Origin: Anaerolineae bacterium
GTDB lineage: Bacteria > Chloroflexota > Anaerolineae > Aggregatilineales > Phototrophicaceae
Assembly (NCBI GenBank): GCA_022843385.1
Contig: JALHNT010000040.1
Coordinates: forward strand, 1-64,000
Direction of reading: 5' to 3'
DNA: 64,000 nucleotides
The stretch's first letter is position 1. Every line of letters begins with the position of its first letter. Shown one piece after another: positions 26,671 to 63,349 of the stretch. A model generated the notes under the pieces. It was not told the origin of the DNA, searched no databases, and saw nothing but the letters and a program-made list of their open reading frames with translations. The translations under genes and the position numbers were made by a program.

Positions 26671-26673
26671 GCC

Positions 26674-27768: not shown

Positions 27769-27782
27769 GTCAAACGTTTGAC
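27769..27782. promoter_or_regulatory. 14-bp perfect palindrome over the -35 box
   Basis: GTCAAAC/GTTTGAC. Its right arm overlaps the -35 hexamer TTGACA, so a bound dimer would block RNA polymerase. The centre CG with flanking AAA/TTT resembles LacI-family sites in style only. Confidence 0.5.
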
Positions 27783-27807
27783 AGACCAGGTCACGTCATG
27801 TTACATT
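27778..27807 (+). promoter_or_regulatory. Promoter of the Rpe-like/MocA/GMC operon
   Basis: -35 TTGACA (27778-27783), 18-bp spacer, -10 TACATT (27802-27807) with an extended TG two bases before. Transcription would start just before or within the operator at 27815. Confidence 0.65.
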
Positions 27808-27814
27808 GTAATAA

Positions 27815-27839
27815 TGCACAGAGAGTGTGCAATTGCACA
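27815..27839. promoter_or_regulatory. Candidate SorC-type operator, copy 1
   Basis: Three half-sites TGCACA-N5-TGTGCA-N2-TGCACA; the last two form the perfect 14-bp palindrome TGTGCAATTGCACA. The same three-part spacing occurs at 63297-63321 in front of the SorC-type regulator gene. Its position, just after the -10 box, fits repression. Confidence 0.7.
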
Positions 27840-27867
27840 GACCGGCTTCGAGAAAAGGAATCCTAAC

Positions 27868-28671
27868 GTGGTTGAACCCATTGGCAAGGTGACACAGCAG
27901 TGCAAGATCGCCGCCGGATTATTCTGGGCCGATTATGCCGTATTAGGCGCACAAGTGAAAGACCTGGAACAGGCCGGAGTCGATTGGATTCATATCGAAG
28001 TCCGCGATGGCAAGTACATGGATTTCGGGATGCCGCGCGGCGGGTTTGACATCATCGAAGGCACCCGTAAAAGCACGGCGCTGGAGATCGAAGCCCAGCT
28101 TCAGATGGTGCGCCCGACTTTCGATGTCTTCAAGCAGTTGGCCGATATTGGCGTGAACCTGATCTCGCTGCCGATTGAGACCACCGGCGAAACCCTGATC
28201 CAGAATATCACCTACATCAAAGAGACGCTGGGCCTAAAAGTCGGCGTCTGGGCCTGGCAGGGCTGCCCAACCCTCTTCTTTGAACAATACATCCCGTTCG
28301 TGGACATCATTGAATACGAAAGCCGGGCGCCGTTCTGGGTCAGCACCAGCGGTAGCAAGAGTCCCCATACCATCGACCCGATTGTGGTCCAGAGCGTGCG
28401 CCAACTCCATGACATGATTGTCGCTGCCGGGCGCGAAGGGCAGGTGGAATTGATGGAAGATGGCGGGCTGAACGCCGGCAATGTGGCTGAGTTCATCGCG
28501 GTTGGTATGACCGTGGGGGAATTCTCTTCGCCTTTGCTCAAAGGGTCGAACGGCAAGCTGCAACCCGGCACCGGCGAGATCGCGGCTGCTGTCAAGAAAC
28601 TGCGGGATGTGATGACCCAGGCCAGCGACCAGTACCGCGATGTGGACGGGCTGAAGAAAGCGCAGGGGTAA
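27868..28671 (+). CDS. Ribulose-phosphate 3-epimerase-like TIM-barrel protein
   Basis: About 267 residues, somewhat longer than Rpe (about 220). Rpe-type text: KIAAGLFWADYAVLGAQVKD, HIEVRDGKYMDFG (in place of the usual H-DVMDG-F), VRPTFDVFKQLADIGVNLIS and ELMEDGGLNAGN (in place of EVDGG). The two metal-bearing histidines of Rpe are not all evident, so the substrate probably differs (for example a keto-hexose phosphate). GTG 27868 has AAAGGAA 8 bp upstream; the earlier ATGs lie inside the promoter or operator. First gene of an operon with MocA, GMC and SDR enzymes. Confidence 0.78.
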   Translation: MVEPIGKVTQQCKIAAGLFWADYAVLGAQVKDLEQAGVDWIHIEVRDGKYMDFGMPRGGFDIIEGTRKSTALEIEAQLQMVRPTFDVFKQLADIGVNLISLPIETTGETLIQNITYIKETLGLKVGVWAWQGCPTLFFEQYIPFVDIIEYESRAPFWVSTSGSKSPHTIDPIVVQSVRQLHDMIVAAGREGQVELMEDGGLNAGNVAEFIAVGMTVGEFSSPLLKGSNGKLQPGTGEIAAAVKKLRDVMTQASDQYRDVDGLKKAQG

Positions 28672-28672
28672 G

Positions 28673-29818
28673 ATGAAAAAACTGGGCGTCGCCCTGATCG
28701 GCTATGGCGGGATTGGTCGGGTTCATGCCATAGCCTACCGCAATATTCCCTTTCACTATGGCCTGCCCGCCGACAGCATCCGCATCGTCGGGGTCGCTAC
28801 CAGCAACCCGGATAGCGCCCAAAAAGCGGCGGCCGAGATCGGCTGCGAGATCGGCACCGCCGATTATCGTGAGCTGCTGGCGCACCCGGAGGTGGACTTC
28901 ATCGACTGCTGTCTGCCTAACAACCTGCATGAAGCGGTCGTCATCGCGGCAGCGCAGGCCGGTAAGCACATCTACTGTGAGAAGCCGCTGGCGATGAACG
29001 TGGCTGAAGCGCAGCGGATGGTCGAAGCGGTGGAGCAGGCCGGCGTCAAAACTCAGGTGACCTTCAACGTGCGCTTCTACCCGGCGATGCAGCGCGCCAA
29101 ACAATTGATTGACGATGGTTTCATCGGACGGGTGTTTTCCTATCGTGGTCGTTACTATCGCTCCAGCTATATCGACGCCAGCAAACCGCTGTCATGGCGG
29201 CTCAGTCGGGCGGTTTCCGGTGGCGGGGCGCTCTTCGATCTCGGTTCACACATCCTCGATCTGGCCTATTATCTGCTGGGCGAGTTTGGTTCGGTACAGG
29301 CTACACTCGATACGCTCATCAAGGAACGTCCGGTCGCAGCCGGTTCGTCTGAGATGCAGCCGGTGGATGTGGACGACATCGCCTTGATGCACACGCGCCT
29401 CAAGGATGGCACACTCGGTCTGTTTGAAATCTCGCGCATGGGAACCGGGGCGACCAATGACTGCATCATCGAGGTCTTTGGCGATAAAGGGGCGCTGCGC
29501 TTCAATGCGGCAGATATGAACTGGCTGGAGGTCTATGACGCCCGCGACCCGGAGAAGCCCCTCGGCGGAATGCGCGGCTTCCGCAAGATTGAAACGATTG
29601 GGCGCTATGATGGCGCGAAATCGCCCGATTGGTCGCACACACCGGGCTTCATCCGCAGCCACGCCGAATGTCAATATCAGTTCATGAAAGCCATCAGCCA
29701 TGATAAACCCGCCGCGCCCAACTTCACCGATGGGCTGCATATCCAGGCAGTGATGGAAGCGGCTGAACGCTCATCGGAACAGGGACGCTGGGTAAAGTTA
29801 AGTGAGGTTGGTGGCTAA
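28673..29818 (+). CDS. Gfo/Idh/MocA-family oxidoreductase
   Basis: 381 residues. Rossmann start GVALIGYGGIGRVHA, YCEKPLA at about 105 (Lys of the EKP motif), then the alpha/beta C-terminal domain with GGGALFDLGSHILDLAYYL (Asp/His pair). The family oxidises inositols and sugars with NAD(P). It is 1 bp after the Rpe-like stop and its stop abuts the GMC gene. The operator in front of the operon ties it to the regulator next to the IolC-like gene, which makes an inositol-type substrate a fair guess. Confidence 0.9.
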   Translation: MKKLGVALIGYGGIGRVHAIAYRNIPFHYGLPADSIRIVGVATSNPDSAQKAAAEIGCEIGTADYRELLAHPEVDFIDCCLPNNLHEAVVIAAAQAGKHIYCEKPLAMNVAEAQRMVEAVEQAGVKTQVTFNVRFYPAMQRAKQLIDDGFIGRVFSYRGRYYRSSYIDASKPLSWRLSRAVSGGGALFDLGSHILDLAYYLLGEFGSVQATLDTLIKERPVAAGSSEMQPVDVDDIALMHTRLKDGTLGLFEISRMGTGATNDCIIEVFGDKGALRFNAADMNWLEVYDARDPEKPLGGMRGFRKIETIGRYDGAKSPDWSHTPGFIRSHAECQYQFMKAISHDKPAAPNFTDGLHIQAVMEAAERSSEQGRWVKLSEVGG

Positions 29819-31354
29819 ATGACGCGCGAAGTGGATGTCGTCATCATCGGCAGCGGCATGGGTGGTGGGACGCTGGCTTATGCGCTGCGCGACGCCGGGC
29901 TGAAAATTCTGCTGATCGAACGGGGAGATTACCTGCCAGCCGAGCCGGAGAACTGGCAACCGGAAGCGGTCTTCGACCAGAAGCGCTATAAGCCGGATGA
30001 ACATTGGCTGGATGCCAGCAACAGCCAGCCGTTTCAGCCGGGCGTCCACTATTTTGTCGGTGGCAACACCAAAGTCTATGGGGCGGCGCTGCCCCGGTTG
30101 CGGCGCGAAGACTTTGGCGCGGTCGAACACGAAGGCGGGACATCGCCGGCCTGGCCGATCAGCTACGATGATCTGGAACCCTACTATGCCGAAGCGGAAC
30201 GCCTTTATCGGGTGCATGGCAAACCCGGCGACGACCCGACCGAACCAGCCCGTTCCGGCCCCTTTCCCTATCCCCATGTCCCCAACGAATCCTATATGGA
30301 TGATCTGGCGGATCGGCTGCGGGGTCAGGGCTTACACCCGTTTTACCTGCCGATGGGGATCGATCTGCGGGAAGGGGGGCGCTGCATCCGCTGCAAAACC
30401 TGTGATGGCTTCCCCTGTAAAGTGATGGCGAAGAGCGATGCCGATACCTGCGCGGTGCGTCCGGCGCTGGAGGGTGGACAGGTTGACTTATGGACGCAAA
30501 CCAGGGCGCTGCGCCTGCTGACCGATGATACCGGCAAACAGATCGTTGGGGTGGAAGTCGAGCGTCTGGGCGAGAAAGTCATCGTTCGTGCGACCCACTA
30601 CATCGTCGCGTGCGGTGCGGTCAATTCGACGCTGCTGCTGCTGCGCTCGGCCAACGCCAAACACCCCAACGGTCTCGCCAACTCATCGGGGCAATTAGGG
30701 CGCAATTATATGGTGCATAACAACACCGCCTTGATGGCGGTTGATCCGTTCCGCCGCAACCCAACTGTGTTTCAGAAGACGATGGCCGTCAACGATTATT
30801 ACTTCAGGAGTGATCGCTGGCGCTACCCGATGGGCAATGTTCAGCTTTTGGGCAAGCTCCAGGCGGGGATGCTGACCGCCGCCCAACCCCTCGTCCCCAA
30901 ACCGATTCTGCAAGGCATGGCGAACCGCAGCGTTGACTGGTGGGTGATGTCGGAGGATTTGCCCGATCCCAACAACCGCATCGAACTGATGAGCAGCGGT
31001 CAGGTGCGCGTCCACTGGAAGCCCAACAACCTCGTCGCTCATGACCAGTTGATCCAGGCCAGCCGCGACATGATGAAACGCGCCGGTTATCCGCTGGTGC
31101 TGATCCAGCGCATGGGCATCGAGACCAACTCACACCAATGCGGCACGGCGCGGATGGGGCATGACCCGGCTAGCTCGGTGCTGGATGCCCATTGCAAGGC
31201 TCACGACCTGGACAATCTCTATGTGCTGGATGCCTCGTTCTTTCCATCATCTGCCGCCATGAACCCGGCACTGACCATCGCTGCGCAGGCGCTCCGGGTG
31301 GGTCGCCATCTGGCGCAGCGCTTGGGAGTCACAATTGCGCCTGTACACAACTGA
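29819..31354 (+). CDS. GMC-family FAD oxidoreductase with a four-cysteine insertion
   Basis: 511 residues. FAD motif VVIIGSGMGGGTLAYAL at about 6-22, ending with a GMC C-terminal domain (NSHQCGTARMGHDP with catalytic His, then NPALTIAAQALR). Between them, at about 181-205, CIRCKTCDGFPC gives the spacing C-x2-C-x2-C-x4-C. Substrates of the family are alcohols, sugars and polyols; the electron acceptor is often membrane-bound or cytochrome. It directly follows the MocA gene. No signal peptide. The cysteine group may hold a metal or a disulphide. Confidence 0.88.
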   Translation: MTREVDVVIIGSGMGGGTLAYALRDAGLKILLIERGDYLPAEPENWQPEAVFDQKRYKPDEHWLDASNSQPFQPGVHYFVGGNTKVYGAALPRLRREDFGAVEHEGGTSPAWPISYDDLEPYYAEAERLYRVHGKPGDDPTEPARSGPFPYPHVPNESYMDDLADRLRGQGLHPFYLPMGIDLREGGRCIRCKTCDGFPCKVMAKSDADTCAVRPALEGGQVDLWTQTRALRLLTDDTGKQIVGVEVERLGEKVIVRATHYIVACGAVNSTLLLLRSANAKHPNGLANSSGQLGRNYMVHNNTALMAVDPFRRNPTVFQKTMAVNDYYFRSDRWRYPMGNVQLLGKLQAGMLTAAQPLVPKPILQGMANRSVDWWVMSEDLPDPNNRIELMSSGQVRVHWKPNNLVAHDQLIQASRDMMKRAGYPLVLIQRMGIETNSHQCGTARMGHDPASSVLDAHCKAHDLDNLYVLDASFFPSSAAMNPALTIAAQALRVGRHLAQRLGVTIAPVHN

Positions 31355-31372
31355 GTGTTGATCCAAACAGGC

Positions 31373-31390
31373 GCATCAGTGGGCTGATGC
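31373..31390 (+). terminator. Hairpin after the GMC gene
   Basis: GCATCAG-TGGG-CTGATGC, followed by CACGCTTTTGTTT. The stem is only 7 bp and the T run is interrupted, so it is a weak or partial terminator 18 bp after the stop. Confidence 0.45.
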
Positions 31391-31442
31391 CACGCTTTTG
31401 TTTATAGTTATGCGTAACTCGGCATCACTCAGGGGGCATCTC

Positions 31443-32198
31443 ATGAAACTGAAGGGCAAGACCGCATTCATCACTGGGGCGGCCAACGGCATCGGCGAAG
31501 CCACCGCGCGACGATTGGCGGCAGATGGCGCCCGCGTTGTCATGACGGATATTGAAATCGAGCGACTAGCTCAGGTGGCTGCCGAGATCGCCGCAACGGG
31601 AACCGAGGTCAGGCATTATCCGCTGGATGTTACGCGCCGCGATCAGGTGCAGGCGGTCTTCGATCAGCTTCAGACGGATTGGGGTGCGCCCGATGTGGTG
31701 GCGCACATCGCTGGCGTCGGCAAGGCTCTGCACTTCCTCAAGCTGACGGATGCCGACTGGTCGCGCACCATTGATATCAATTTGCGGGGATCATTCCTGG
31801 TCGGGCAAATCGGCGCACAGGCGATGGTCAACGCCGGGATTCACGGTTCCATCGTGTTCATGGCCTCGACCAATGGCCTGGTGGCTGAAGAAGAACTGGC
31901 CGATTACAACGCTTCCAAGTTTGGGGTCGTCGGTTTGATGAAAACGATGGCGATTGATCTGGCGTCGTCTCATATCCGCGTCAACAGCGTCAACCCCGGT
32001 CTGATCCGCACCCGGCTGACGCAGGGATCGTGGGACGAAACCGAAACCGGTCAGTGGTATACCCGCGAACGCATTCCAATGCGCCGGTTAGGGTTGCCGG
32101 CTGAGGTCGCTGCCTGTGTTTCCTTCCTGGCCTCGGATGATGCGTCTTACGTTACTGGTCATACGCTGGTGGTGGATGGCGGCCAGTTGACATTGTAG
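31443..32198 (+). CDS. SDR-family NAD(P)-dependent oxidoreductase
   Basis: 251 residues. TGAANGIGEATA cofactor motif, Ser in MASTNGL, Tyr/Lys in YNASK and SYVTGHTLVVDGG at the end. NHIAGVG replaces the classic NNAG (here HIAGVG), a common variant. ATG 31443 has GGGGG upstream; the longer frame from 31398 has none. It follows the GMC gene by 88 bp and a weak hairpin, so it can be transcribed with the operon or alone. Likely an alcohol dehydrogenase of the same pathway. Confidence 0.88.
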   Translation: MKLKGKTAFITGAANGIGEATARRLAADGARVVMTDIEIERLAQVAAEIAATGTEVRHYPLDVTRRDQVQAVFDQLQTDWGAPDVVAHIAGVGKALHFLKLTDADWSRTIDINLRGSFLVGQIGAQAMVNAGIHGSIVFMASTNGLVAEEELADYNASKFGVVGLMKTMAIDLASSHIRVNSVNPGLIRTRLTQGSWDETETGQWYTRERIPMRRLGLPAEVAACVSFLASDDASYVTGHTLVVDGGQLTL

Positions 32199-32248
32199 CG
32201 GTTACGAAAATATCTCAAGGGATGCAATAGTCTGAAAGCCACAACAAT

Positions 32249-32283: not shown

Positions 32284-32285
32284 CG

Positions 32286-34168: not shown

Positions 34169-34227
34169 TCGCCAGCGCGCTCCTTCAGGGTTATAGTCAT
34201 GCCGATTGTCCACTCACACGGTTGATT

Positions 34228-36444: not shown

Positions 36445-36497
36445 CTTTCATCATGCTACCCTACAACTACAGTTTTCAGGTTTAAGGAGAAATGGGA

Positions 36498-37658
36498 ATG
36501 TCACGGACTCGAATTAGTTTGCTGGCGGTCATGCTGGTCGCCTTGCTGGCGGTCTCGTTCGCGGGCGTCAGCGCCCAGGATGAACCGCTGCGGATTTCGC
36601 TGGTTGTCAACGGTGTGCTGGGCGATAAGTCGTTCTTCGACTCGGCGCAGCGTGGTATGGATATGGCGATGGATGAGTATGATATCGAAGTCAATACCAT
36701 CGAACTCGGCATCGATCCGCAGAACTGGGAGAGCGGTCTGGCTGATGCCATGAGCGACAGCGAGAGCTATGATGTGCTGATCGCCGGAACCTTCCAGATG
36801 ATCGACTTCCTGGCGAGCAACTCACATAAGTACCCGGACAAGACCTTCGTCTTCTTCGATGCCCCGATGCCCTACGACAATGCCGAACTGTGTGTTGAGG
36901 GCTGTGCCAACGTCTACTCGATCACCTACAAGCAGAATGAAGGCTCGTTCCTGGCCGGTGTCTACGCCGCTGCCATGAGCAGCCAGGAAATCGAAGGCAT
37001 GAACCCGGAAGTCGTCCTCGGTGCGCTGGGTGGTCAGGACATCCCGGTCATCAATGACTTCATCGTGGGTTACGAACAGGGTGCCTGCCTGGTCAGCGCC
37101 GATGCACAGGTGCTGGTACAGTATGCCGGTGGCTGGAATGACCCGGCCAAGGGCAAGGAAATCGCCCTGGCGATGTACGAACAGAATGCCGACATCGTCT
37201 TCCAGATCGCTGGCGGCACCGGCGTGGGCGTGTTTGAAGCGGCTGAAGAGCAGGGTCACTTCGCCATCGGCGTCGACTCCGACCAGGCCAGCATTATCCT
37301 CGACACCGATCCGGAACAGGCGGTTCGTATTCTGACCTCGATGCAGAAGAACGTCGATGCCTCGCTGTTCCGCGCGGTTGGTCTGATCCTGGATGGCGAA
37401 CTGCCGGTTGGCACGGTTGAAAATCTGGGTCTGGATACCAACGGTGTCAGCCTGTCGATCAACGACATCTACACCGAAGCCACCCCGCAAAATGTGCAGG
37501 ATCTGGTCGCCGCTGCCACTGAAGCCGTGGTCGCCGGCGACATCACGGTGAACACCGTGTTCGCTGACGAAGCCACTGCTGCGAAGGTTGGTCAGGGTTG
37601 CGCCGCGATGCCCGCCACCGAATTCGATGCATCGGAATATCTGAGCGCCGGAATGTAA
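36498..37658 (+). CDS. BMP-family ABC substrate-binding protein (nucleoside/simple sugar)
   Basis: About 386 residues. Signal peptide SRTRISLLAVMLVALLAVSF ends near VSAQDEP; there is no lipobox Cys. The BMP (Med/PnrA-like) fold is marked by VNGVLGDKSFFDSAQRGMD, KQNEGSFLAGVYAA and IAGGTGVGVFEAAEEQG, then GVDSDQA. It captures a nucleoside or sugar outside the cell for the transporter downstream. ATG 36498 has AAGGAG 8 bp upstream; ATG 36492 would be too close to that site. A strong terminator-like hairpin follows, favouring high expression of this component. Confidence 0.9.
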   Translation: MSRTRISLLAVMLVALLAVSFAGVSAQDEPLRISLVVNGVLGDKSFFDSAQRGMDMAMDEYDIEVNTIELGIDPQNWESGLADAMSDSESYDVLIAGTFQMIDFLASNSHKYPDKTFVFFDAPMPYDNAELCVEGCANVYSITYKQNEGSFLAGVYAAAMSSQEIEGMNPEVVLGALGGQDIPVINDFIVGYEQGACLVSADAQVLVQYAGGWNDPAKGKEIALAMYEQNADIVFQIAGGTGVGVFEAAEEQGHFAIGVDSDQASIILDTDPEQAVRILTSMQKNVDASLFRAVGLILDGELPVGTVENLGLDTNGVSLSINDIYTEATPQNVQDLVAAATEAVVAGDITVNTVFADEATAAKVGQGCAAMPATEFDASEYLSAGM

Positions 37659-37686
37659 TCGCCTTGCGCTGATCGTTTCTAGCAGA

Positions 37687-37713
37687 ACAAGGGGCTTCCA
37701 AGCCCCTTGTTTT
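37687..37713 (+). terminator. Attenuating terminator after the binding-protein gene
   Basis: Stem ACAAGGGGC/GCCCCTTGT (extended inward by TT/AA) with four T. It lies inside the operon, between binding protein and ATPase, and would lower transport-subunit transcripts relative to the binding protein. Confidence 0.82.
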
Positions 37714-37750
37714 ACACACAGCCAGGTAGGTCGTTCTCACGAAAATCAAT

Positions 37751-39289
37751 ATGCCCTTATTAGAAGCCCTCAACATTGTTAAGGTCTACCCCAATGGCGT
37801 GCGCGCCAACAACAACATCTCCTTCTCGATTGAGCAGGGGGAAATTCATGCCATCGTCGGCGAAAACGGCGCGGGCAAATCCACCCTGATGAAGATGTTG
37901 TATGGCCTGGAGACGCCAACTTCCGGTCAGATCACGCTGCGCGGTCAGCCGGTATCGATTGACACCCCGCATAAAGCCATTGAACTCGGCATCGGCATGG
38001 TGCACCAGAACTTCATGCTGGTCGATTCGTTCACCGTCGCCGAGAACATCGCGCTGGGGAGAGAACCGCGCAGTGGCGCAGCGCTCGACCGCGCCAAAGC
38101 GATTCAGGATACCAGGCAACTGGCCGAAACCTATGGCCTGCAGGTTGACCCCACCGCTCGGATCGACTCGATCCCGGTGGGGATGCGCCAGCGCGTCGAG
38201 ATTCTCAAGGCGCTCTATCGTGGGGCGGAAATCCTGATCCTCGATGAACCCACCGCTGTGCTGACGCCGAAAGAGACCAACGATCTGTTCACCGCGATCC
38301 GCAGTCTGGTCAAACAGGGCAAGACCCTGATCTTCATCACCCATAAGCTGCGCGAGGTGATGGAAATCTCCGATCGGGTGACGGTGATGCGCGATGCCCA
38401 GAAGGTCGGTACGGTCAACACCCGCGACACCAGCATCCCGGAACTGGCGCGAATGATGGTTGGGCGCGAAGTCTTCATGGTGGTCGATAAGCCGCCGGTC
38501 AAGCGCGGTCAGCCGGTGTTGGAAGTCAAAGACCTGACTTATGCCAACGAGGCCGGACGGGCATTGGTCAACCATGTCTCCTTCACGGTCTACGAGAATG
38601 AAATTCTCGGCATCGCTGGCGTCGAGGGCAACGGCCAGACCGAGCTGATCGAGGTGCTGACGGGTCTGCGGAATCCTACCGGCGGCGAAGCCCTGGTCGA
38701 TGGCAAACCGATTCTGGGGCAGGGGCCGCGCAAAGTCCGGGAGAACCGGGTGACCCACATCCCGGAAGATCGCCTGACCAACGGCGTCGCCCGCGATGGC
38801 AGCATTGCCGATAACCTGATTATTGACCGCTACTATCGCGCTCCTTACGCCCGTTCCGGCCTGCTTGACCTGGGTAAGGTGGCTCAGAATGGTGCCGACA
38901 TGATTAAGCAATTCGGCATCCTGGCACCCAGCTCGTCGCTGCCCGTCGGCAGTCTATCGGGCGGCAACATGCAGAAAGTCATCGTCGCCCGCGAGTTCTC
39001 CTCATCGCCCCGGCTGCTGATCGCTGCCCAGCCCACGCGCGGCGTGGACATCGGCGCAATCGAATTCATCCATCAGCAGTTGGTCAATAAACGCACCGAA
39101 GGTCTGGCGATTCTGCTGGTCTCGGCGGATTTACAGGAAGTGATGAAACTGGCTGACCGGCTGATGGTGATGTACAACGGCGAGGTCGTCGCCATTTTGC
39201 CCAACGGCCCAGATGTGACCGAAGAGAAGCTGGGTCTGTATATGCTGGGCGCAGCGCGGCAAACCGCCGAGGAAATGGGGGCTGTCTGA
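37751..39289 (+). CDS. Double ABC ATPase of a nucleoside/sugar importer (NupO/RbsA-like)
   Basis: 512 residues, two fused nucleotide-binding domains. The first has Walker [10 protein letters not shown], signature-side [11 protein letters not shown], Walker [11 protein letters not shown] and H-loop ITHKLRE. The second has a degenerate Walker A ([10 protein letters not shown], no Lys-Ser/Thr), [15 protein letters not shown] and a TRGVD Walker B region, as expected for this class, in which site two is often inactive. It powers the two permeases encoded next. No ribosome site is evident before ATG 37751. Overlaps the permease start by 1 bp. Confidence 0.93.
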
Positions 39290-42400: not shown

Positions 42401-42413
42401 CCGGTGAACGCAC

Positions 42414-43358
42414 ATGAACCAGTCGTGGGTTGTTGGCATTGATCTGGGCGGCACTAAAATCGATATGGGTCTGATCGCGCCCGATAACGGCGTCATCGCG
42501 CGTCATCGGATGCCGACCCAGAACGAACAGGGGCCGCAGGCGATGGTGGAACGCATCGCCCAGGTCATGGCTGACTTTGCCAGTCACCTGCCAGCCGGCA
42601 AGACCATCGAAGCCCTCGGCATCTGCACCCCTGGCCCAGTGGATCACATCAGCGGTTCGCTGCTGACGCTGGTCAATCTGCCCGGTCTGTCCCACAGTCC
42701 GCTGCGGCAGATGCTGGCTGACCGATTGGGTATCCCGGTCAAACTCGATCATGATGCCAAAGTCGCGGCGCTGGGCGATTTTCATTACGGTGCCGGACGC
42801 GGGGCGCGCAGCATGACCTACACCGTGTTGGGGACGGGTGTGGGCGCGGCCATCATCCTGAATGGACAGTTGTACTACGGCGATGGCAATGCCGCTGGCG
42901 AAGTTGGTCACATCACCATTGACCGCTACGGCGAGATGGAGAACAGCGGTGTGCGCGGCGCGGTGCAGCGCTACACCAGCGGCCCCAACCTGGCGCGACA
43001 GTACCGTGAGGTCGTGGGCAGCGCGGTGATGGCGGATGGCACGCCGATCACCGGGGAAGTCGTGGCGCAGCGAGCGTTGTCTGGCGACCCGGTCGCCGTT
43101 CGATTGATCGCTGAAGCCGGCGAGGCGCTCGGCATCGCGGTGGCGTCGATGGCAATGATCCTCGATATTGAACTGAACGTCATCGGCGGCGGGTTGGCAC
43201 GATTGGGCGACCTGTTGCTGGAGCCAGCCCGTCAGTCGATGAGGCGTTACTGCTTTCAGGCGTTGGGCGAACGGGTGAAGATTGTCGCCAGCGCACTGCC
43301 GGATACTGGCCCGCTTCTCGGCTGCGCTTACATGGCACGGGAGTTACTCCATACCTGA
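42414..43358 (+). CDS. ROK-family protein lacking the zinc motif
   Basis: 314 residues. ATP and sugar motifs of ROK kinases: VVGIDLGGTKIDMG, KLDHDAKVAALGDFHYG, VLGTGVGAAII and GEVGHITIDRYG. The zinc segment CxCGxxGCxE that normally follows is replaced by MENSGVRGAVQRYTSG with no cysteine. No HTH is present, so it is a kinase-type rather than a repressor-type ROK. It likely phosphorylates a hexose, glucosamine or allose, though loss of zinc ligands may change stability or substrate. Thirteen bases after the permease. Confidence 0.85.
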   Translation: MNQSWVVGIDLGGTKIDMGLIAPDNGVIARHRMPTQNEQGPQAMVERIAQVMADFASHLPAGKTIEALGICTPGPVDHISGSLLTLVNLPGLSHSPLRQMLADRLGIPVKLDHDAKVAALGDFHYGAGRGARSMTYTVLGTGVGAAIILNGQLYYGDGNAAGEVGHITIDRYGEMENSGVRGAVQRYTSGPNLARQYREVVGSAVMADGTPITGEVVAQRALSGDPVAVRLIAEAGEALGIAVASMAMILDIELNVIGGGLARLGDLLLEPARQSMRRYCFQALGERVKIVASALPDTGPLLGCAYMARELLHT

Positions 43359-43377
43359 TCGATTGATCGGAATGGTA

Positions 43378-43407
43378 TTCGTCACACACACGCGGATTGG
43401 ATAGAAT
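43378..43407 (+). promoter_or_regulatory. Possible internal promoter before the ADP-ribosylglycohydrolase gene
   Basis: TTCGTC, 18-bp spacer, TAGAAT in the 91-bp gap after the ROK gene. A fair -10 box but weak -35. Confidence 0.35.
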
Positions 43408-43449
43408 GTCAATTCGCAGTTGTATGACGCAGCGCATAGGAGTCCCGAT

Positions 43450-45802: not shown

Positions 45803-45805
45803 CCC

Positions 45806-46759: not shown

Positions 46760-46760
46760 C

Positions 46761-50322: not shown

Positions 50323-51276
50323 CTACACATACCACGCCGTACTCACTACCGGCGCAGGGACTTTCGCCGACCAGTCGCTAGCATTCTCGGCACAGATCGT
50401 TGCCAGTTCGCGCATACGCTCGCGTCCGGTGGTCTGAAGAAATTGCGTGCGCGCTTCAGCCTGAAGCTGCACCGCCTCGCCCCACACTGCCCGTCCAGCG
50501 ATCACCCCGCTGGCTCCCCCCTGGCAGGCCACCAGGGTTTGGCGCTTGAACAGGTCATAGCTCACCCCCGCGCTCAACAGCGCCCAGGGGACAGTGCAGG
50601 CTGCTGTGACGTCAGCCACCGCCGCCCGCCACACCGCCTCATCCGGCTCGTGCTTCACATCCACCGGGAACTCCAGCTTCAGGACATCGACCCCCAGCTT
50701 GCAGAAAACGCGGACGCTCTCCACCACCACCTGTCGCAGTTCGGCATTGGTGAGCGAACGCTGCGGGTCGAGCGAGTAGGCAATCGGTTCGAGGAAGAAG
50801 GGGATGTCCCAGCGGCGGCATTCATCGACAACCCGCGACACCAGATCATGCTTCTCCGCCGCCACGCCATCCGCCGGATGATAATACAGCAGGAGCTTGA
50901 CGCCTGTCCCGCCCACGCGCTTGATCTGCTCTACCGACCAGTTTCCAATGAAGCGCGTCATGCGCTGGCTGGGATGCACATCATAATTGGTCTCTTCCAG
51001 CGGAGCCAGCAGCCCCTTCTGCCCGCTGATAGATCCCTCAGCGATGCCGGCGCTGATGCCGTAGGTCGGGTCGGTCAGGACGGCGCTGGCTTCCGGCAGC
51101 AGGTGATGCATGACCTGGCGTTTGAAATCGGTGAACTGTGCCTCGGTGATGGGTGACGGGGCATACTGGTTGAGCGCCGCCTGTAGATTGGCGCGGTGAT
51201 CGACCGCGACGATGGCGAAATGCCCGGCGGGGGTGCTGGATTGCAACAGATGGCGATACTTGCCGAGCGTCGTCAT
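50323..51276 (-). CDS. LacD-type class I aldolase
   Basis: 317 residues, DeoC/LacD family. VAVDHRANLQAAL at the start, GVKLLLYYHPADG (Schiff-base Lys region), IPFFLEPIAYSLD, VDVLKLEFPVD, LLSAGVSYDLF and GVIAGRAVWGEA match LacD point by point. LacD cleaves tagatose 1,6-bisphosphate; here the gene overlaps the IolC-like kinase by 4 bp (ATGA), so it may cleave the phosphorylated 5-dehydro-2-deoxygluconate instead of the usual IolJ (inferred). Products would be dihydroxyacetone phosphate and a C3 semialdehyde. Confidence 0.87.
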   Translation of the reverse strand: MTTLGKYRHLLQSSTPAGHFAIVAVDHRANLQAALNQYAPSPITEAQFTDFKRQVMHHLLPEASAVLTDPTYGISAGIAEGSISGQKGLLAPLEETNYDVHPSQRMTRFIGNWSVEQIKRVGGTGVKLLLYYHPADGVAAEKHDLVSRVVDECRRWDIPFFLEPIAYSLDPQRSLTNAELRQVVVESVRVFCKLGVDVLKLEFPVDVKHEPDEAVWRAAVADVTAACTVPWALLSAGVSYDLFKRQTLVACQGGASGVIAGRAVWGEAVQLQAEARTQFLQTTGRERMRELATICAENASDWSAKVPAPVVSTAWYV

Positions 51277-52280
51277 AGGCCACCATACCCGGCGGTGAAC
51301 GCCTCGACTTCGGGCAGTGTGGGCATGAAGTTGGCACAGCCGTGTTTGGTGACGACAATCGCGCCGCAGGCATTGCCCAACCGCGCCGATCGGTACAGAC
51401 TCCAGCTGTTGACCAGGCCGTAGAGAAAGCCGCCGCCGAACGCATCGCCCGCGCCCAGAATGTTGTAAATCTCCACCGGGAAACCCGGCACATCCACCGG
51501 CGCTTTCCCGATCTCATGCAGGCGCGCCCCGTGTGCCCCACGCTTCTCGACCAGCACCGGCGGGCCATAGGCCATCAACTGCTGGATCGCCGCCTCGGTA
51601 TCGCCCTCGACATGGGTATCCGAGTCCGACGGGGTGCGGCGCACCTGATCCGCCGCCGTCAGCATGGCCGCGTTGATCTCGTCCTCGGTGCCGATGACAA
51701 TATCGACCAGCCGCAGTGCCGAACGGATGGCGACGCCGAACGCGCGCGCGTCGTGCCACTGGCTGGGGCGGAAATCGATGTCCAGCACCACCTTTGCTCC
51801 GGCAGACCGGGCCAGTTCGGCGGCGAAAAGGGTGGCGCTGCGCGAGGGGTCTTTGCTCAGGTTGAGGCCGGCGAACTGGAACACCTTGCAATCGGTAATC
51901 GGGGAGGCGATCACATCATCAATCGTCAGTTCGATGTCGGCGCAGTTGTCGCGGTAAAACGTCAGTGGGAAATGATCGGGCGGCTCGATGCCCAGCACCG
52001 CCGCAGCCGTGCGCCGTCCGGCCTTGCGCGGGATGAACTGGGTGGCGATGCCTTCTTTGGTCAGGAAGTTCAGCACGAAGTCCCCGACCGGGTCCTGACC
52101 GACTGCCGTCAGCAGAGCGGTCTTCAGCCCCAGACGTCGCGCCCCGACGCAGATGTTGGTGGGCGACCCGCCGACATAGGCGGCAAAACTGGTGATGTCG
52201 ATAAAGGCCGCGCCGACATCGTTCGAATAGAGGTCAATCGAACTGCGGCCCATGTTGAGCAAGTCATAGGTAGGAGTCAT
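51273..52280 (-). CDS. iolC: 5-dehydro-2-deoxygluconokinase-like PfkB kinase
   Basis: About 335 residues. The N-terminus DLLNMGRSSIDLYSNDVGAA, AAYVGGSPTNICVGARRLGL and FPLTFYRDNCADIEL are characteristic of IolC rather than of general PfkB proteins. VVLDIDFRPSQW and GAGDAFGGGFLYGL (catalytic Asp) complete the kinase. IolC phosphorylates 5-dehydro-2-deoxy-D-gluconate in myo-inositol breakdown. IolB, IolD and IolE are not in the window. Start ATG 52280 by homology; ATG 52295 is 5 codons earlier. Operon with the LacD-type aldolase. Confidence 0.85.
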   Translation of the reverse strand: MTPTYDLLNMGRSSIDLYSNDVGAAFIDITSFAAYVGGSPTNICVGARRLGLKTALLTAVGQDPVGDFVLNFLTKEGIATQFIPRKAGRRTAAAVLGIEPPDHFPLTFYRDNCADIELTIDDVIASPITDCKVFQFAGLNLSKDPSRSATLFAAELARSAGAKVVLDIDFRPSQWHDARAFGVAIRSALRLVDIVIGTEDEINAAMLTAADQVRRTPSDSDTHVEGDTEAAIQQLMAYGPPVLVEKRGAHGARLHEIGKAPVDVPGFPVEIYNILGAGDAFGGGFLYGLVNSWSLYRSARLGNACGAIVVTKHGCANFMPTLPEVEAFTAGYGGL

Positions 52281-52410
52281 GATAAGTGAACGCATTCTCC
52301 GATCAGGAAGCGAATCAACTGACAGTCAATTGTACCGTCGAGCCGGATAAAGCGCAGCCTGATGGAGGGGCAGGTGGATCTGCCCCTGTGTCATCACATC
52401 AGAAGAAGAA

Positions 52411-52824
52411 TCACGACCCGCCCAACGCCGCCACGCCTTCCTTTGCCAGCACCACATCATCGGCTTCTGGCAGTCCGCTGACCCCCACCGCGCCGACGAC
52501 TTCGCCGTTGTGCAGGATCGGCACACCCCCGCCCCAACCGACGTAGCGCAGCTCACCGAAGTTCGTCAGCGGCCAGGCTTTCTCGCGCGAGGAATTGCCC
52601 ACATCCTTGCTTTCCTTGCGTTCGCGGGCGGCGGTGTAAGCCTTGTTGATGGCGATATTGATCGAAGGCAGCGGGCAGCCCTCGGTGCGGGCGAAGGCCA
52701 GCAGCTCGCCATGCGAATCGACGACGGCGACGGCAGCCCCGCGCCCCTGTTTTTCCAGTTCACTTTGAATATGCCCCAGCACTTTCTGGGCATCGCTGAG
52801 TGTCAGTACGGTTACGGTTTTCAT
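52411..52824 (-). CDS. HbpS/GlcG-like (DUF336) protein
   Basis: 137 residues. AVAVVDSHGELLAFARTEGC, SINIAINKAYTAARERK and GGGVPILHNGEVVGAVGVSG are the three blocks of the GlcG/HbpS family. Members bind haem or cob(I)alamin-type ligands or sense redox; in catabolic operons they accompany oxidases and dehydratases. 14 bp separate it from the DegT gene upstream, and 130 bp from the IolC-like gene downstream, so it ends the DegT unit. No ribosome site is clear. Confidence 0.87.
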   Translation of the reverse strand: MKTVTVLTLSDAQKVLGHIQSELEKQGRGAAVAVVDSHGELLAFARTEGCPLPSINIAINKAYTAARERKESKDVGNSSREKAWPLTNFGELRYVGWGGGVPILHNGEVVGAVGVSGLPEADDVVLAKEGVAALGGS

Positions 52825-58369: not shown

Positions 58370-60826
58370 CTAGACGCCCAGGCGGTTGCGGCGGAGGATT
58401 TCGCTGGTGGTCTGCTGCGTCGTCACCTGATGACCGGGCAGCGGCAGGATGCGCTCGTGAATGGTGTCAAGCAGCCACTCAGCAGTGGGAAAGAACAGGT
58501 CTTCCAACTCGGCTGGCGGGGTGATCCAGTTGCGCGCCCCGACCACCGCCACCGGGCCATCCAGATGATCGAAGGCCAGTTGGCTGATGTTGGAAGCGAG
58601 GGTGTGCATGAACGAGCCGCGTTCGCAGGCGTCTGAAGCCACCAGAATCTTGCCGGTCTTCTTCACCGACTCAACGATCTTGTCGTAGTTCAACGGGTTG
58701 ATGAAGCGGGCGTCGATGACTTCTGCCGACAGGTTGTATTTCTGCTTCAGGATGTCGGCGGCTTGCAGCGCCCGGTAGAGCGTCGCGCCGACGGTCAACA
58801 GGGTGATGTCGCTGCCTTCGCGGTAGATAGCCGGTTCGCCCATCTCAACTTCATAGTAGCCCACCGGCACGCCGCTCTTGACCAGGACTTCCGGTTCAGT
58901 GTAAAGCCGCTGGCTCTCGAAGAAGATCACCGGGTCGGTGCCACGCAGCGCCAGGTTGAGCATCCCTTTGGCGTCATACGGCGTGGCCGGGAACATGACC
59001 TTCAGACCGGGGATATGGGCGACCAGCGCCGTCCAGTCCTGCGAGTGCTGCGCCCCATATTTCGAGCCGACGGAGACGCGCAGCACCAACGGCATCTCCA
59101 GCACGCGGGCGGACATCGACTGCCACTTCGCCATCTGGTTGAAGATTTCGTCGCCAGCGCGCCCCATGAAGTCGCAGTACATCAACTCGGCCACCACGCG
59201 CCCACCGCTGATGGCATAGCCCACCGACGTGCCGGCAATCGCGCCTTCCGAAATAGGTGAGTTGAACAGGCGGTGATAGGGCAGGGCTTCGGTCAGGCCG
59301 CGATACACGCCGAACGCGCCACCCCAGTCGCGGTTCTCTTCACCGTAGGCGATCATGGTTGGGTCTTCATAGAAGCGGTGAATCATGGCCTCGAACAGCG
59401 CCTCGGCATAGGTCAGGCACTTCAGCTTGGGCAGCGGCTTGCCGGCTTCATCAAGGCCGTAGCGGAACTTCTCCGCGGTCACTTTCAGGCGGGTTTCTTC
59501 CTTCGGCAGCAGGACTTCCGGCGTCCCTTCTGCCATGCGATCCTTGACGCCGTTGGAGAACATCAGCTCGCCAATCTGGTCGCCTAGGCTGATGCGCGGC
59601 GATTGTTCCAGCGAGATCGCTGCCTTCAGCACCTTGACCAGCCGGGCGACGATGCCAGCGCGGATGGTCGCCATCTGGGCTTCGCTCGAATGCCCATTGT
59701 CCATCAGGTATTCACCGAAATTGAGCAGCGAATCCTGCTGCCGCCACAGATCGACTTCCGACTTGTCGCGGTACGATGACGCATCCGAGGGCGAGTGTCC
59801 GGTGAAGCGGTAGGTGATGGTGTCGAGCATGACCGGGCCGCGCCCTTCGTCCAATACCTGACGCTTGCGGGCGATGGCATCGGCCACCGCCAGCGGATTG
59901 TAACCATCGATGCGTTCGACGTGCATGGCCTCCGGGTTGACGCCCAGCCCCACGCGCGCGAGCATCCCAAAGCCCATCGTTTCGCCCTGTGGCTGGCCGC
60001 CCATGCCGTAGAAGTTATTCATGAAGTTGAAGATCATCTTCGGCGCACCGCCCAGGTCTTTGTCCCACAGCGTGTGGTACTGATCCATCGCCGCGAACAT
60101 CATCGCTTCCCAGACCGGCCCGCAGCCCATCGAAGCATCGCCGATGTTGGCGATCACGATGCCGGGTTTGCGATTGACGCGCTTGTACAGGGCTGACCCG
60201 ACGGCAATATCCGCCGACGCGCCGACGATGGCGTTGTTGGGCATGATGCCGAAGGGCGGGAAGAAGGCGTGCATCGAGCCGCCCATGCCTTTGTTGAAGC
60301 CGGTGACGCGCCCGAAGATTTCCGCCAGCGCTCCATACAGCAGAAAATCAATCGCCAGTTCCTTGATCGAGCCTTTAGAGAAGGTCTCGACCACTTTCAG
60401 GACGGCGCCATCCATGTAGCTTTCCATGATGGCCTGCAACTGGTCATCGCTCATCTTATCGATGGACGACAGACCCTTCGCCAGGATTTCGCCGTGACTG
60501 CGGTGTGAACCGAAGATGAAATCGTCGGGCGTCAGATGATACGACTGACCGACCACCGATGCTTCCTGACCGATGGACAGGTGAGCCGGGCCTTTATGGT
60601 TGTATTCGATGCCCTCGTAGCTGCCTTCTTTTTTGATGCGATCCAGCATCGTCTCGAACTCGCGGATGACCGCCATATCGCGGAACATCCGCACCAGATT
60701 GGTCGTGCCGTAAACGTTGGCTTCCAACACCGGGTTCGATTCATAGGCATTCACCGGGATTTCAGGCGCGACGATGCTGGTCTTTTTGCGCGCTTCTACC
60801 GGGTCGATCATGAGTGTCTTGGTCAC
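58370..60826 (-). CDS. Fused alpha-beta E1 of a 2-oxo acid dehydrogenase complex
   Basis: About 818 residues. The alpha half has [15 protein letters not shown] and the TPP motif [14 protein letters not shown]...NNFYGMGGQ; the beta half begins near [15 protein letters not shown] and has [30 protein letters not shown] and [19 protein letters not shown]. It decarboxylates a 2-oxo acid or acetoin and passes the acyl group to E2. GTG 60826 is chosen: AAAGGA lies 8 bp upstream. An insertion in the alpha half (about 150-180) is unlike standard PDH. No E3 gene nearby. Follows E2 on the same strand. Confidence 0.9.
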
Positions 60827-60904
60827 AGCGTCAATCCTTTGGTCTGAGATAAGCAAGGTTTTCGGGTCTGACCCGTGCAATGATTTCGTTGAGTGATGGA
60901 TACC

Positions 60905-62254
60905 TTATACCGCCAGCAGCAGCTCGAACTGCGCGATGTTCCGCGCCAGCGCTTGCAGGAACCGCGCCCCCGGTGCGCCATCCACAATCTGGTGATCGAC
61001 AGTCAAGGACAGGCCGATGCTGGGGATGAATTCCAACTGCTCATCCAATTCGACCGCCTTCAGATGGATGTTGCCCACGCCCAGGATGGCGACCTGCGGC
61101 GGGTTCAGCACCGGAGTGAAGGTTTCGACGCCGAATGCCCCCAGATTGGAGACAGTGAAGGTTCCGCCATCCAGTTCATCCAGCTTGATCTTGCCTTCCT
61201 GACAGGCCGCCGCCAGCCGCGCCGCCTCTGCCGAAAGCTGCTTCAGGTTGAGGTGGTTAGCATTCCGAATGACCGGCACCATCAGGCCGCGTGGGGTATC
61301 GACGGCGAAGCCCAGATGCACATCGGCATAACGGTAGATGGTCTCGTCTTTCAGCCAGCCGTTGATGTCGCGGAACTGCGGCAGCGTCCGGGCGACGGCG
61401 TACATCACCAGATCGTTGATGGTCACCTTACGCAGACCCAGGCTCTCGTCACTGGCTTTCAGCCGGGCCCGGTAAGCCTGCAAGTCACGCGCATCAGCGA
61501 AGGCGTTCATGGTCAGTTGCGCCGTTGTTTGCAGCGAATTCAGCATCCGCCCGGCAATGACTTTGCGGACACCCTTCAGCGGCAGGGTTTCGACTTCACC
61601 GGCGCTGGCCGGGGCGACCGCCAGGGCAGGGCTTTCCGCCGGGGCGCTGGTTGGGATCAGGTCTTTCTTGGTGACTCGTCCGCCGGGGCCGCTGCCCTGT
61701 GCCGGGGCGACAAACTCACCGGCTTCGACCATCGACTTGGCGACTGGCGTCAGTTTCGGCTGCCGTTCCAGCGCCGCCAGCACATCGCGCTCGATGATGC
61801 GTCCGCCGGGGCCGCTGCCGTTGATGCCCTCCAGGTTGAGCGTCTTGCGCTCGGCCAGGTTGCGGGCGCGCGGCGAGATACCGATGATGGCGGCTGATCC
61901 GACCGCTGCGCTGACCGTTTCGCTGACAGGCGATGCCAGTGGCACGGCTGCGACCGCCACGACCGGAGCTTCGGCTGCGACAGCCCCGCCCGGACGCAGA
62001 TGATCGACATTCTCTCCGCTCTGACCGATGGCGGCGATGTTGACCATCACCGGAACGTCATCGCCGGTTTTGAAGAACTGTGCCAGCAAGACGCCGGATG
62101 CCGGACTTTCGACATCCACCGTCGTCTTATCGGTTTCGACTTCGCACAGCGCGTCGCCTTCCTTCACGGTATCGCCGACCTGTTTCTTCCAGCCGACGAT
62201 GATCGAACTCTCGACGCTGTTGCCCAGCTTGGGCATCACCACCGCAGTAGCCAT
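60905..62254 (-). CDS. E2 dihydrolipoamide acyltransferase with two peripheral-subunit-binding modules
   Basis: 449 residues. Lipoyl domain 1-80 with Lys43 in [13 protein letters not shown]; two E1/E3-binding modules at about 126-165 ([11 protein letters not shown]...[13 protein letters not shown]) and 168-205 ([12 protein letters not shown]...[13 protein letters not shown]); acyltransferase core with [13 protein letters not shown] at the end. One such module is the norm, so a second is unusual. It lies between the regulator and E1, reversing the usual E1-E2 order. The acyl chain cannot be predicted. Confidence 0.9.
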
Positions 62255-62303
62255 CCTGTATTGTCCTTATGGTTGCTTGTAAAAATGCATGATTTTCGAC
62301 TCT

Positions 62304-63266
62304 TCAGACATGGGTTACCGTGTCCAGTTCCAGCACCCGGTTGGCGGTTTCGTCATCAGTACACAGCACCTTGATCGCTCCGGTGCGGAGCGCCCCCAGA
62401 ATCGCCCGTGTCTTCTCCGATCCCATCGCCACCGCCAGCGTCGTCGGTATCTGGCGCAGTTCATCCATCGTGATGGCGATGACGCGCTGGTTGAGCAGGC
62501 AGGGATGCAGCTCGCCGTGCAGCGTGAAAATGTAGCCGGCCAGATCGCCAACTGCGCCTTCCTGCGAGAGCTGGCGCATCTCGTCGGCTGAGACGAATCC
62601 GGCTTTGACGTACATGGAGATATTCGGATCAAGCTGCCCGATGCCGAGCAGGGCGATGTCGGCGATGCGGGCGGTCGTGAGCGCCCGTTGGATGTCGCGC
62701 TGATTGCGTACCACGGCGGCGGCTTCGGCGGAATCCACGATCAGCGGCGACGAGAGATAATGGACTTCGCCGTTGACTTTGTGCGCCAGTTGACGCGCCA
62801 GCACCGCGCTGTCGAGTTCCTGCATGATGCGCGGCATACTGCCCATCGCCTGAGCGATCTGCACCCGTCCGCGTACATCTGGGCGAATGGCGTTGATGAC
62901 TTCGTAAGTGGAGTGACCGAGACAGACGGCGACAGTGGCGCTGGTGTTGAGGTATTGTTCCAGATAGCGGGCGCTGAGCTGCCCCAGACGGCGCAGTTCG
63001 GCGTTGGGGTTGCGATGCGAGTTCTCCAGCACGCGGGCGTCTTTCAACCCGAAGCGCTGGCGCAGTTGTTCTTCCAGCAATGGATTGCGCTTGATCGGCC
63101 AATCGATGATGATCTGGACGACGTTTTCTTCACGCGCCTGCTTCAACAGCCGGTAAACCTTGACGCGCGACACCCCCAGTTCATCGGCTATCGCGTTCTG
63201 CGTCATGTCCCGTTCGTAATACATCGAGGCGATCTGCGCCAGCAGCGCGTGTTGGTGTTCTTCCAT
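62304..63266 (-). CDS. SorC/DeoR-type sugar-responsive transcription regulator
   Basis: About 320 residues. An N-terminal HTH (MTQNAIADELGVSRVKVYRLLKQA, cited QNAIADELGVSRVKVYRLL) is followed by a SorC-type sugar-binding domain with VAVCLGHSTYEVINAI, VQIAQAMGSMPR and IALLGIGQLDPNISMY, ending VAMGSEKTRAILGALRTG. Effectors of the family are phosphorylated sugars. ATG 63266 begins a natural start for the HTH; upstream in-frame codons lie in the promoter. Its own promoter carries the three-part operator (63297-63321), so autorepression is likely. E2 and E1 follow in the same direction. Confidence 0.9.
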   Translation of the reverse strand: MEEHQHALLAQIASMYYERDMTQNAIADELGVSRVKVYRLLKQAREENVVQIIIDWPIKRNPLLEEQLRQRFGLKDARVLENSHRNPNAELRRLGQLSARYLEQYLNTSATVAVCLGHSTYEVINAIRPDVRGRVQIAQAMGSMPRIMQELDSAVLARQLAHKVNGEVHYLSSPLIVDSAEAAAVVRNQRDIQRALTTARIADIALLGIGQLDPNISMYVKAGFVSADEMRQLSQEGAVGDLAGYIFTLHGELHPCLLNQRVIAITMDELRQIPTTLAVAMGSEKTRAILGALRTGAIKVLCTDDETANRVLELDTVTHV

Positions 63267-63296
63267 GCCACGATCTTGTACTAAAGGTGATACAAA

Positions 63297-63321
63297 TGCA
63301 CTTATGATGTGCATTTGCACA
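63297..63321. promoter_or_regulatory. Candidate SorC-type operator, copy 2
   Basis: TGCACT-N5-TGTGCA-N2-TGCACA, the same three half-sites and spacings as 27815-27839. It overlaps the last base of the -10 box and covers the start point of the regulator's promoter. Confidence 0.72.
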
Positions 63322-63349
63322 CTATAACACGAAATCAGGATTTCGTCAA
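63321..63349 (-). promoter_or_regulatory. Promoter of the regulator gene
   Basis: On the minus strand TTGACG, exactly 17 bp, TATAGT. The operator begins at the -10 end. Confidence 0.78.

What the first reader, a model, noticed from the sequence alone, without database searches (positions are those of the whole stretch)
27769..63349. One three-part operator joins two distant catabolic blocks into a likely SorC-type regulon
TGCACA-N5-TGTGCA-N2-TGCACA at 27815-27839 and TGCACT-N5-TGTGCA-N2-TGCACA at 63297-63321 have the same half-sites and spacings. Each lies just after or on a -10 box. The second is the promoter of a SorC-type regulator, E2 and E1; the first fronts the Rpe-like/MocA/GMC operon and also faces the peptide-type permease genes. 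I saw no third copy. Repression with release by a phosphorylated sugar is the simplest reading. The orientation relative to transcription is opposite at the two sites.
Basis: partly seen in the sequence, partly recalled or inferred. Interest (0 to 1): 0.72.

Follow-up and report, generated by a model that had tools for sequence, protein, structure and literature searches.

The report
Four-part sugar-regulator operator reunites split operon

Summary
The 25-bp pattern occurs at 27815-27839 and 63297-63321 and, with up to 2 mismatches, nowhere else in the 7.85-Mb genome. (1) The site is really a 33-bp, four-half-site operator, TGTGCA-N2-TGCACA-N5-TGTGCA-N2-TGCACA, one end half-site decayed in each window copy. 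Both copies begin at the last base of a -10 box, so the "opposite orientation" is only which end decayed. (2) Control of the neighbouring peptide-type permease genes is not supported. In relatives (mostly Chloroflexota by record title) the two blocks form one cluster, E2-E1-SorC-Rpe-MocA-...-GMC-HbpS-ROK. Of 66 loci collected by the Rpe-like gene, 44 of 45 with the SorC regulator carry the operator, against 3 of 21 without. In the order, 35 of 154 genomes have the operator and all 35 are among the 38 with the SorC orthologue. A model trained on seven relatives' operators finds only the two window sites in this genome. Most likely mechanism: a DeoR-type SorC tetramer covers the transcription start and is released by a phosphosugar. 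Binding, repression and effector are inferred, not shown.

The parts
27807..27839 (+). Operator 1, 33 bp, four half-sites: TGTAAT (27807-27812, degenerate, 3 of 6), TGCACA (27815-27820), TGTGCA (27826-27831), TGCACA (27834-27839)
27778..27807 (+). Promoter-like site of the Rpe-like operon: -35 TTGACA 27778-27783, spacer 18, -10 TACATT 27802-27807; the last base of the -10 is the first base of operator 1
   Evidence: sequence
27868..28671 (+). Rpe-like protein (PF00834), first gene of the block; GTG start chosen from homologues and an AAAAGGA sequence upstream
28673..29818 (+). Gfo/Idh/MocA oxidoreductase (best NCBIfam levoglucosan dehydrogenase, 290.7 bits against a cut-off of 650)
29819..31354 (+). 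GMC oxidoreductase (closest solved relatives by sequence: fructose dehydrogenase large subunit and glucose dehydrogenase)
31398..32198 (+). Short-chain dehydrogenase, last gene of the block; no counterpart seen in the relatives' Rpe clusters
63289..63321 (-). Operator 2, 33 bp; + strand half-sites GATACA (63289-63294, degenerate, 3 of 6), TGCACT (63297-63302), TGTGCA (63308-63313), TGCACA (63316-63321)
63321..63349 (-). Promoter-like site of the SorC operon: -35 TTGACG 63349-63344, spacer 17, -10 TATAGT 63326-63321; the last base of the -10 is the first base of operator 2
   Evidence: sequence
62304..63266 (-). SorC-family regulator (PF04198 plus N-terminal HTH), DeoR/LsrR/SorC-like, proposed to bind both operators
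60905..62254 (-). 2-oxoacid dehydrogenase E2 (lipoyl, E3-binding and catalytic domains)
58370..60880 (-). 2-oxoacid dehydrogenase E1, alpha and beta fused
42414..43358 (+). ROK-family sugar kinase; homologue of the ROK gene of the relatives' cluster, here apart and without an operator (the genome was not searched for other ROK genes)
52411..52824 (-). HbpS-like protein; homologue of the HbpS gene of the relatives' cluster, here apart and without an operator (the genome was not searched for other HbpS genes)

Best explanation
A DeoR-subfamily SorC regulator (62304-63266) controls its own operon (SorC-E2-E1) and a second operon 35 kb away (Rpe-like-MocA-GMC-SDR) through one 33-bp operator type with four half-sites. 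A tetramer (dimer of dimers) is expected to sit on the two 14-bp palindromes TGTGCA-N2-TGCACA, which repeat every 19 bp. This covers the transcription start just behind the -10 box and shuts out RNA polymerase. A phosphorylated intermediate of the pathway would release it. The ancestral state is most simply one contiguous cluster; in this genome it has been broken up, and the operator keeps two of the pieces co-regulated. Shown by computation: the sites, their placement, their conservation, their co-occurrence with the regulator, and the cluster in relatives. Inferred: binding by this protein, repression, tetramer stoichiometry, a phosphosugar effector, and the direction of the cluster's evolution.
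For: Only two sites in the genome. A sequence-only model built from seven relatives' operators, own sites left out, finds only these two places at E up to 10, and a 47-site model likewise at E up to 1; in both only the best 150 candidates were scored. The Rpe-like gene is in 10 of 101 genomes including the window's own; in 8 of the other 9 the SorC orthologue lies directly upstream. Of 66 loci collected by the Rpe-like gene, 44 of 45 with SorC carry an operator of 18 or more of 24 positions, against 3 of 21 without SorC; one of those three (L144) has a SorC orthologue on another contig. Sixty permuted half-sites reach 18 in at most 6 of 66 loci (mean 0.63) against 47 for the real one, and at 20 or more only the N2 spacing with N5 (34 loci) or N6 (3) stands out, all other spacings giving 0 or 1. 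TTGACA starts exactly 30 bases before the operator in 34 of 50 sites, and an exact TTGACA lies in the 45 bases upstream in 46 of 50. All 35 operator-bearing genomes of 154 in the order are among the 38 with the SorC orthologue. G101 repeats the window's situation: E2 and Rpe-MocA on separate contigs, each with the operator, and SorC on a third. G014 has an operator before E2 on C1 and an N6 form before SorC-Rpe on C7. L115 has three operators, one perfect (24 of 24), before E2-E1, SorC and GMC. The regulator's relatives form a clade (98/99) apart from the genome's other two SorC proteins and share SR[VI]K[VI] in the putative recognition helix, against SRSNV and SRQSV in those two.
Against: No binding or expression data exist. 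G059 has two SorC orthologues and no standard operator near either; a weak match (E 0.26) lies about 36 kb from one of them, and one of its promoters has a diverged look-alike seen by eye only. In G101 no operator was found in the 1.5 kb before SorC itself. In G106 the cluster is also split, and the Rpe block (L129) has no operator (best 16 of 24) although the E2 block has a weak one (18), so a split does not always keep both sites. L155 and L156 carry a scoring operator but only distant SorC proteins (33-37%). G160 has the orthologue and no operator at the threshold. The score of 18 is not far above chance: shuffled 19.5-kb stretches reach 18 in 4 of 100. The relatives' operators were first found with a pattern taken from the window, and the 47-site model was trained on loci that partly are the same genomes as those, so its positives there are partly by construction; the 116 genomes with neither are not. 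Many genomes come from one genus (g17), so counts are not independent.
Confidence: 0.87

Rival explanations
1. The sites are bound by another regulator, such as one of the two other SorC proteins of the genome, and this SorC is only a passenger of the cluster.
For: Two further SorC-family proteins over the cut-off are encoded in the genome (contigs C16 and C64). L155 and L156 have operator-like sites without a close SorC orthologue.
Against: Operator presence follows this SorC clade genome by genome (35 of 38 with it, 0 of 116 without, at the thresholds). The loci around the other two own SorC genes hold no match above the shuffled maximum (best 16 and 17 of 24, null 15-18). Their recognition helices differ. 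One operator is the regulator's own promoter.
Confidence: 0.06
2. The 33-bp element acts in the transcript, as a leader RNA structure, and not as a DNA operator.
For: It lies from about the transcription start into the 5' leader.
Against: Inference from geometry, no folding was run: each 14-bp palindrome has only two bases between its arms, too few for a hairpin loop; and the fixed distance to -35 and -10 is what a DNA site needs.
Confidence: 0.02
3. SorC activates rather than represses these promoters.
For: Some SorC-family proteins are reported as activators (recalled, not looked up).
Against: The operator begins at or just behind the -10 box and runs over the start in both window promoters and most relatives' sites, and 46 of 50 sites have an exact TTGACA upstream, i.e. 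promoters that should need no activator.
Confidence: 0.04
4. The operator also controls the divergent peptide-type permease genes (25729-27702, -).
For: The site lies about 105 bp from the permease start codon on the other strand.
Against: The permease genes have no counterpart in the 9 relatives' Rpe loci (not tested in the 66 loci), and their promoter-like site (-35 from 27760, -10 ending at 27732, 9 of 12) does not overlap the operator.
Confidence: 0.15
5. Chance palindromes in two promoters.
For: Half-operators TGTGCA-N2-TGCACA with one mismatch occur at 14 other places in the genome, about what base counting alone predicts; their surroundings were not examined.
Against: as above.
Confidence: 0.01

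Closest known systems
DeoR of Bacillus subtilis and its dra-nupC-pdp operator (PMC11229326, passages read)
   Same: SorC family, same type of HTH and effector domain; best NCBIfam match of the window regulator and among the best solved matches (8r7y). Its operator is a palindrome plus a direct repeat with a proposed, degenerate fourth half-site, read by a tetramer: the same three-plus-one appearance as the window sites.
   Different: Half-site TTGAA/TTCAA and 39 bp, with a direct-repeat period of 22 bp (counted by me from the printed operator) against TGCACA, 33 bp and 19 bp here. DeoR's operator lies at -60 to -21, this one from the -10 into the leader. The lysine thought to bind deoxyribose-5-phosphate (its identity is recalled) aligns with methionine here. 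Only 193.5 bits against a cut-off of 420.
CggR of Bacillus subtilis and the gapA operator (PMC11229326, passages read)
   Same: Two half-operators read by a tetramer; direct-repeat period 20 bp (counted by me from the printed operator), close to 19 here; downstream of the promoter elements.
   Different: Winged HTH of the other SorC subfamily; 45-bp operator at +32 to +77; different half-sites; glycolytic target genes.
Sorbitol operon regulator SorC (2w48) and LsrR (4go1, 4l5i)
   Same: Best full-length matches among solved structures.
   Different: Different target genes (recalled); their operators were not compared here.

Membership tests
SorC family of regulators | C-terminal sugar-binding effector domain PF04198 | tested here: met
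   221 bits against a cut-off of 27
SorC family of regulators | N-terminal homeodomain-like HTH (DeoR subfamily) | tested here: met
   HTH-type matches at residues about 12-51 counted from the ATG and alignment including the HTH with SorC, LsrR and DeoR chains
SorC family of regulators | Operator made of two half-operators for a dimer of dimers | tested here: met
   Two 14-bp palindromes repeated at 19 bp in the 47 N5 sites of relatives and, with one decayed half-site each, in both window sites; that this protein binds them is not shown
SorC family of regulators | Tetramer on DNA | not testable with these tools
   Needs protein
SorC family of regulators | Phosphorylated sugar as effector | not testable with these tools
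   Family property stated in PMC11229326 (passages); not shown for this protein
Bacillus DeoR equivalog (NF053881) | Score over the curated cut-off | tested here: not met
   193.5 against 420 bits
Bacillus DeoR equivalog (NF053881) | Lysine for covalent deoxyribose-5-phosphate binding | tested here: not met
   Methionine at the aligned position (which lysine is recalled, not read); M, I or T in the clade

The most novel reading that the evidence does not exclude
The sites define a compact operator class for SorC tetramers: four half-sites in 33 bp at 19-bp period, fixed at the -10 box, that shows openly the fourth contact only proposed for DeoR. It governs an undescribed oxidative sugar route (Rpe-like, MocA, GMC, ROK kinase, HbpS-like) that ends in its own 2-oxoacid dehydrogenase, shared across Chloroflexota, with operator-bearing relatives also in two records titled Trueperaceae (L113, L116); related clusters without the operator occur in Spirochaetes-titled records.
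Probability: 0.4. Interest if true: 0.6.

Novelty: new variant of a known kind. Interest (0 to 1): 0.43.

Why it matters
It gives about fifty candidate natural operators of one SorC clade with a nearly fixed promoter geometry, including a perfect four-half-site one, which makes the question of how SorC tetramers read DNA directly testable. It ties a 2-oxoacid dehydrogenase to a sugar-oxidising cluster in uncultured Chloroflexota. It is also a clear case of a regulatory site holding together an operon that the genome has broken up.

Tried and rejected
The three-part reading was dropped after relatives showed four half-sites. The opposite-orientation puzzle was dropped: both 33-bp sites start at the last base of the -10 box. 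Permease control was not supported. Further regulon members in the genome were sought with a half-operator pattern (16 places, of which only the two window sites are exact; the backwards control gives 1; the other 14 places were not examined) and with two models, and none was found. Only the best 150 candidates per genome are scored in those model searches, and 46. The genes between E1 and 49 kb (sugar ABC transporter, DegT, IolC-type kinase, LacD-type aldolase) were considered as part of the operon; a 434-bp gap follows E1 and, apart from HbpS and generic permease matches, they have no counterpart in the relatives' Rpe loci, so they are left out. Paper searches for this operator or for SorC regulons in Chloroflexi: (SorC family, Chloroflexi, operator, regulon) 0 papers; (SorC family, Chloroflexi) 0 papers; some searches listed, among the 12, 12, 9 and 15 papers shown, none that by title or abstract start treats it. 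The library holds only open-licence papers. The pathway's substrate could not be named: the NCBIfam matches shown for the Rpe, MocA, GMC (25 of 30 shown), E1 and E2 proteins are all below their cut-offs; only the SDR passes one, a broad glucose 1-dehydrogenase subfamily model (220.7 against 215).
Full report
OBSERVATION. Both sites read as described. The 25-bp pattern has exact matches only at 27815-27839 and 63297-63321. In the window 4 matches at up to 3 mismatches compare with 0.15 expected by shuffling. In the whole genome no match with 1 or 2 mismatches exists; the seven further ones have 3. A consensus promoter scan places TTGACA-18-TACATT ending at 27807 (+) and TTGACG-17-TATAGT ending at 63321 (-).

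GENES. The first site fronts an Rpe-like protein, a Gfo/Idh/MocA oxidoreductase, a GMC oxidoreductase and a short-chain dehydrogenase. The second fronts a SorC-family regulator, E2 and a fused E1. The regulator's best NCBIfam match is DeoR of Bacillus, under its cut-off (193.5 of 420 bits). Its best solved matches are SorC, LsrR and DeoR. The genome encodes two more proteins over the PF04198 cut-off, on C16 and C64.

RELATIVES. In 101 genomes including the window's own, the Rpe-like gene occurs in 10. In 8 of the other 9 a SorC orthologue at 51-60% identity lies directly upstream; the ninth, G037, has the Rpe operon without it and only a distant SorC (34%) elsewhere. The cluster of relatives, taken together, is E2-E1-SorC-Rpe-MocA-(sugar-binding protein and permeases in some)-GMC-HbpS-ROK; single loci lack one or another gene or are cut by contig ends. 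In the window homologues of the same genes are scattered: Rpe-MocA-GMC at 28 kb, ROK at 42 kb, HbpS at 52 kb, E1-E2-SorC at 58-63 kb. The 35-kb gap between the two sites is therefore most simply a break-up of one ancestral cluster.

OPERATOR. Scanning relatives with four half-sites instead of three gave 20-22 of 24 matching positions before E2 or SorC in G021 (two sites), G008, G058, G056 and G060; 20 with N6 before SorC in G014; and 18 before E1 in G053. Shuffled 19.5-kb stretches reach 15-18, with 18 in 4 of 100. G037 and both SorC loci of G059 had none, and the loci of the more distant SorC proteins reached at most 17. A further site before E2 of G014, outside the stretch first fetched, came up. 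The 33-bp element is TGTGCA-N2-TGCACA-N5-TGTGCA-N2-TGCACA. The window copies match 3,6,6,6 and 6,6,5,3 of 6 in the four half-sites, read along transcription.

WIDER TEST. A scan of named genomes with an alignment of six Rpe-like proteins returned 66 loci, mostly titled Anaerolineae or Chloroflexi, some Trueperaceae and Spirochaetes. These were collected by the Rpe gene, not by the regulator or the site. With SorC at 45% identity or more, 44 of 45 loci carry an operator of 18 or more of 24; without it, 3 of 21 (Fisher 3.5e-12, loci not independent). The one exception is L126 (G059). Of the three, L144 lies in a genome with a SorC orthologue on another contig; L155 and L156 do not have a close one. 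Three loci without SorC are contig-end cuts (L114, L138, L140). Sixty permuted half-sites reach 18 in at most 6 of 66 loci (mean 0.63) against 47 for the real one. At 20 or more, N2 with N5 gives 34 loci, N2 with N6 gives 3, and every other spacing tried 0 or 1. Of 50 sites, 34 have an exact TTGACA starting 30 bases before the operator, and 46 have an exact TTGACA in the 45 bases before it.

GENOME LEVEL. A sequence-only model from seven relatives' sites, window sites left out, finds in the window's genome only the two places (best E 4.1e-4 and 0.0345). The 47-site model gives E 1.4e-4 and 2.7e-4 and no other place at E up to 1. In the order, 35 of 154 genomes have an operator at E up to 1e-3 and 38 of 154 a SorC orthologue at E up to 1e-80. 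All 35 are among the 38; the three without are G059, G157 and G160. G157 has the same regulator place as G106, whose weaker site before E2 is seen at E 0.03.

PARALLEL CASES. G101, the genome of L144, has E2 on C8 and Rpe-MocA on C25, each with the operator (22 and 21 of 24), and SorC on C49 with none in the 1.5 kb before it. G014 has operators before E2 on C1 and, with N6, before SorC-Rpe on C7. L115 has three operators, before SorC, before GMC (that one without a clear -35) and, perfect, before E2-E1. Split clusters with retained operators thus occur more than once. Against this, the split cluster of G106 has only a weak operator before E2 and none at its Rpe block (L129).

REGULATOR. Eleven sequences including the window's form a clade (98/99 support, midpoint-rooted tree of 20) apart from the genome's other two SorC proteins, and share SR[VI]K[VI] in the putative recognition helix. 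The lysine that DeoR is recalled to use for its sugar phosphate is methionine here, so the effector is probably bound in another way.

MECHANISM. DeoR and CggR bind as tetramers, dimers of dimers, each dimer on one half-operator; for DeoR a degenerate extra half-site was proposed (PMC11229326, passages read). The window element fits that plan with a 19-bp period, against 20 and 22 bp counted from the printed CggR and DeoR operators. Its position from the -10 box into the leader implies exclusion of RNA polymerase. Binding, repression and effector are not shown.

VERDICT. The regulon is very probably real; it is a new regulon and a compact operator variant of a known regulator family. The substrate remains unnamed.

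Noticed in passing
27868-28671: The Rpe-like protein aligns to ribulose-phosphate 3-epimerase, but two positions recalled as metal ligands are changed (HVD to HIE, and the later His to Gln), and these changes are invariant among the six relatives aligned. It may not be an ordinary epimerase.
   Followed up: partly
36492-47921: A purine or nucleoside uptake and breakdown set (Bmp-type binding protein, ABC ATPase, two permeases, ADP-ribosylglycohydrolase, PfkB kinase, nucleoside hydrolase, SIS protein) lies between the two operator blocks, as if inserted into the broken cluster.
   Followed up: no
50323-52295: An IolC-type 5-dehydro-2-deoxygluconokinase (385.8 bits, cut-off 300) next to a LacD-type aldolase downstream of E1, suggesting an inositol-like or deoxygluconate branch.
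   Followed up: no
49212-50180: A phosphotransferase-family protein resembling aminoglycoside kinase APH(9) but far below that model's cut-off (214.5 of 680 bits); more likely a kinase of unknown substrate.
   Followed up: no
L047, just before the SorC gene at 9247: One G059 promoter has, by eye, a look-alike operator with TGTTCA-type half-sites in the same place behind TTGACA-17-TATATT, hinting at a change of operator specificity.
   Followed up: no
L155 4806-4838, L156 8945-8977: Operator-like sites before a ROK-Rpe-MocA block in genomes with only distant SorC proteins.
   Followed up: no
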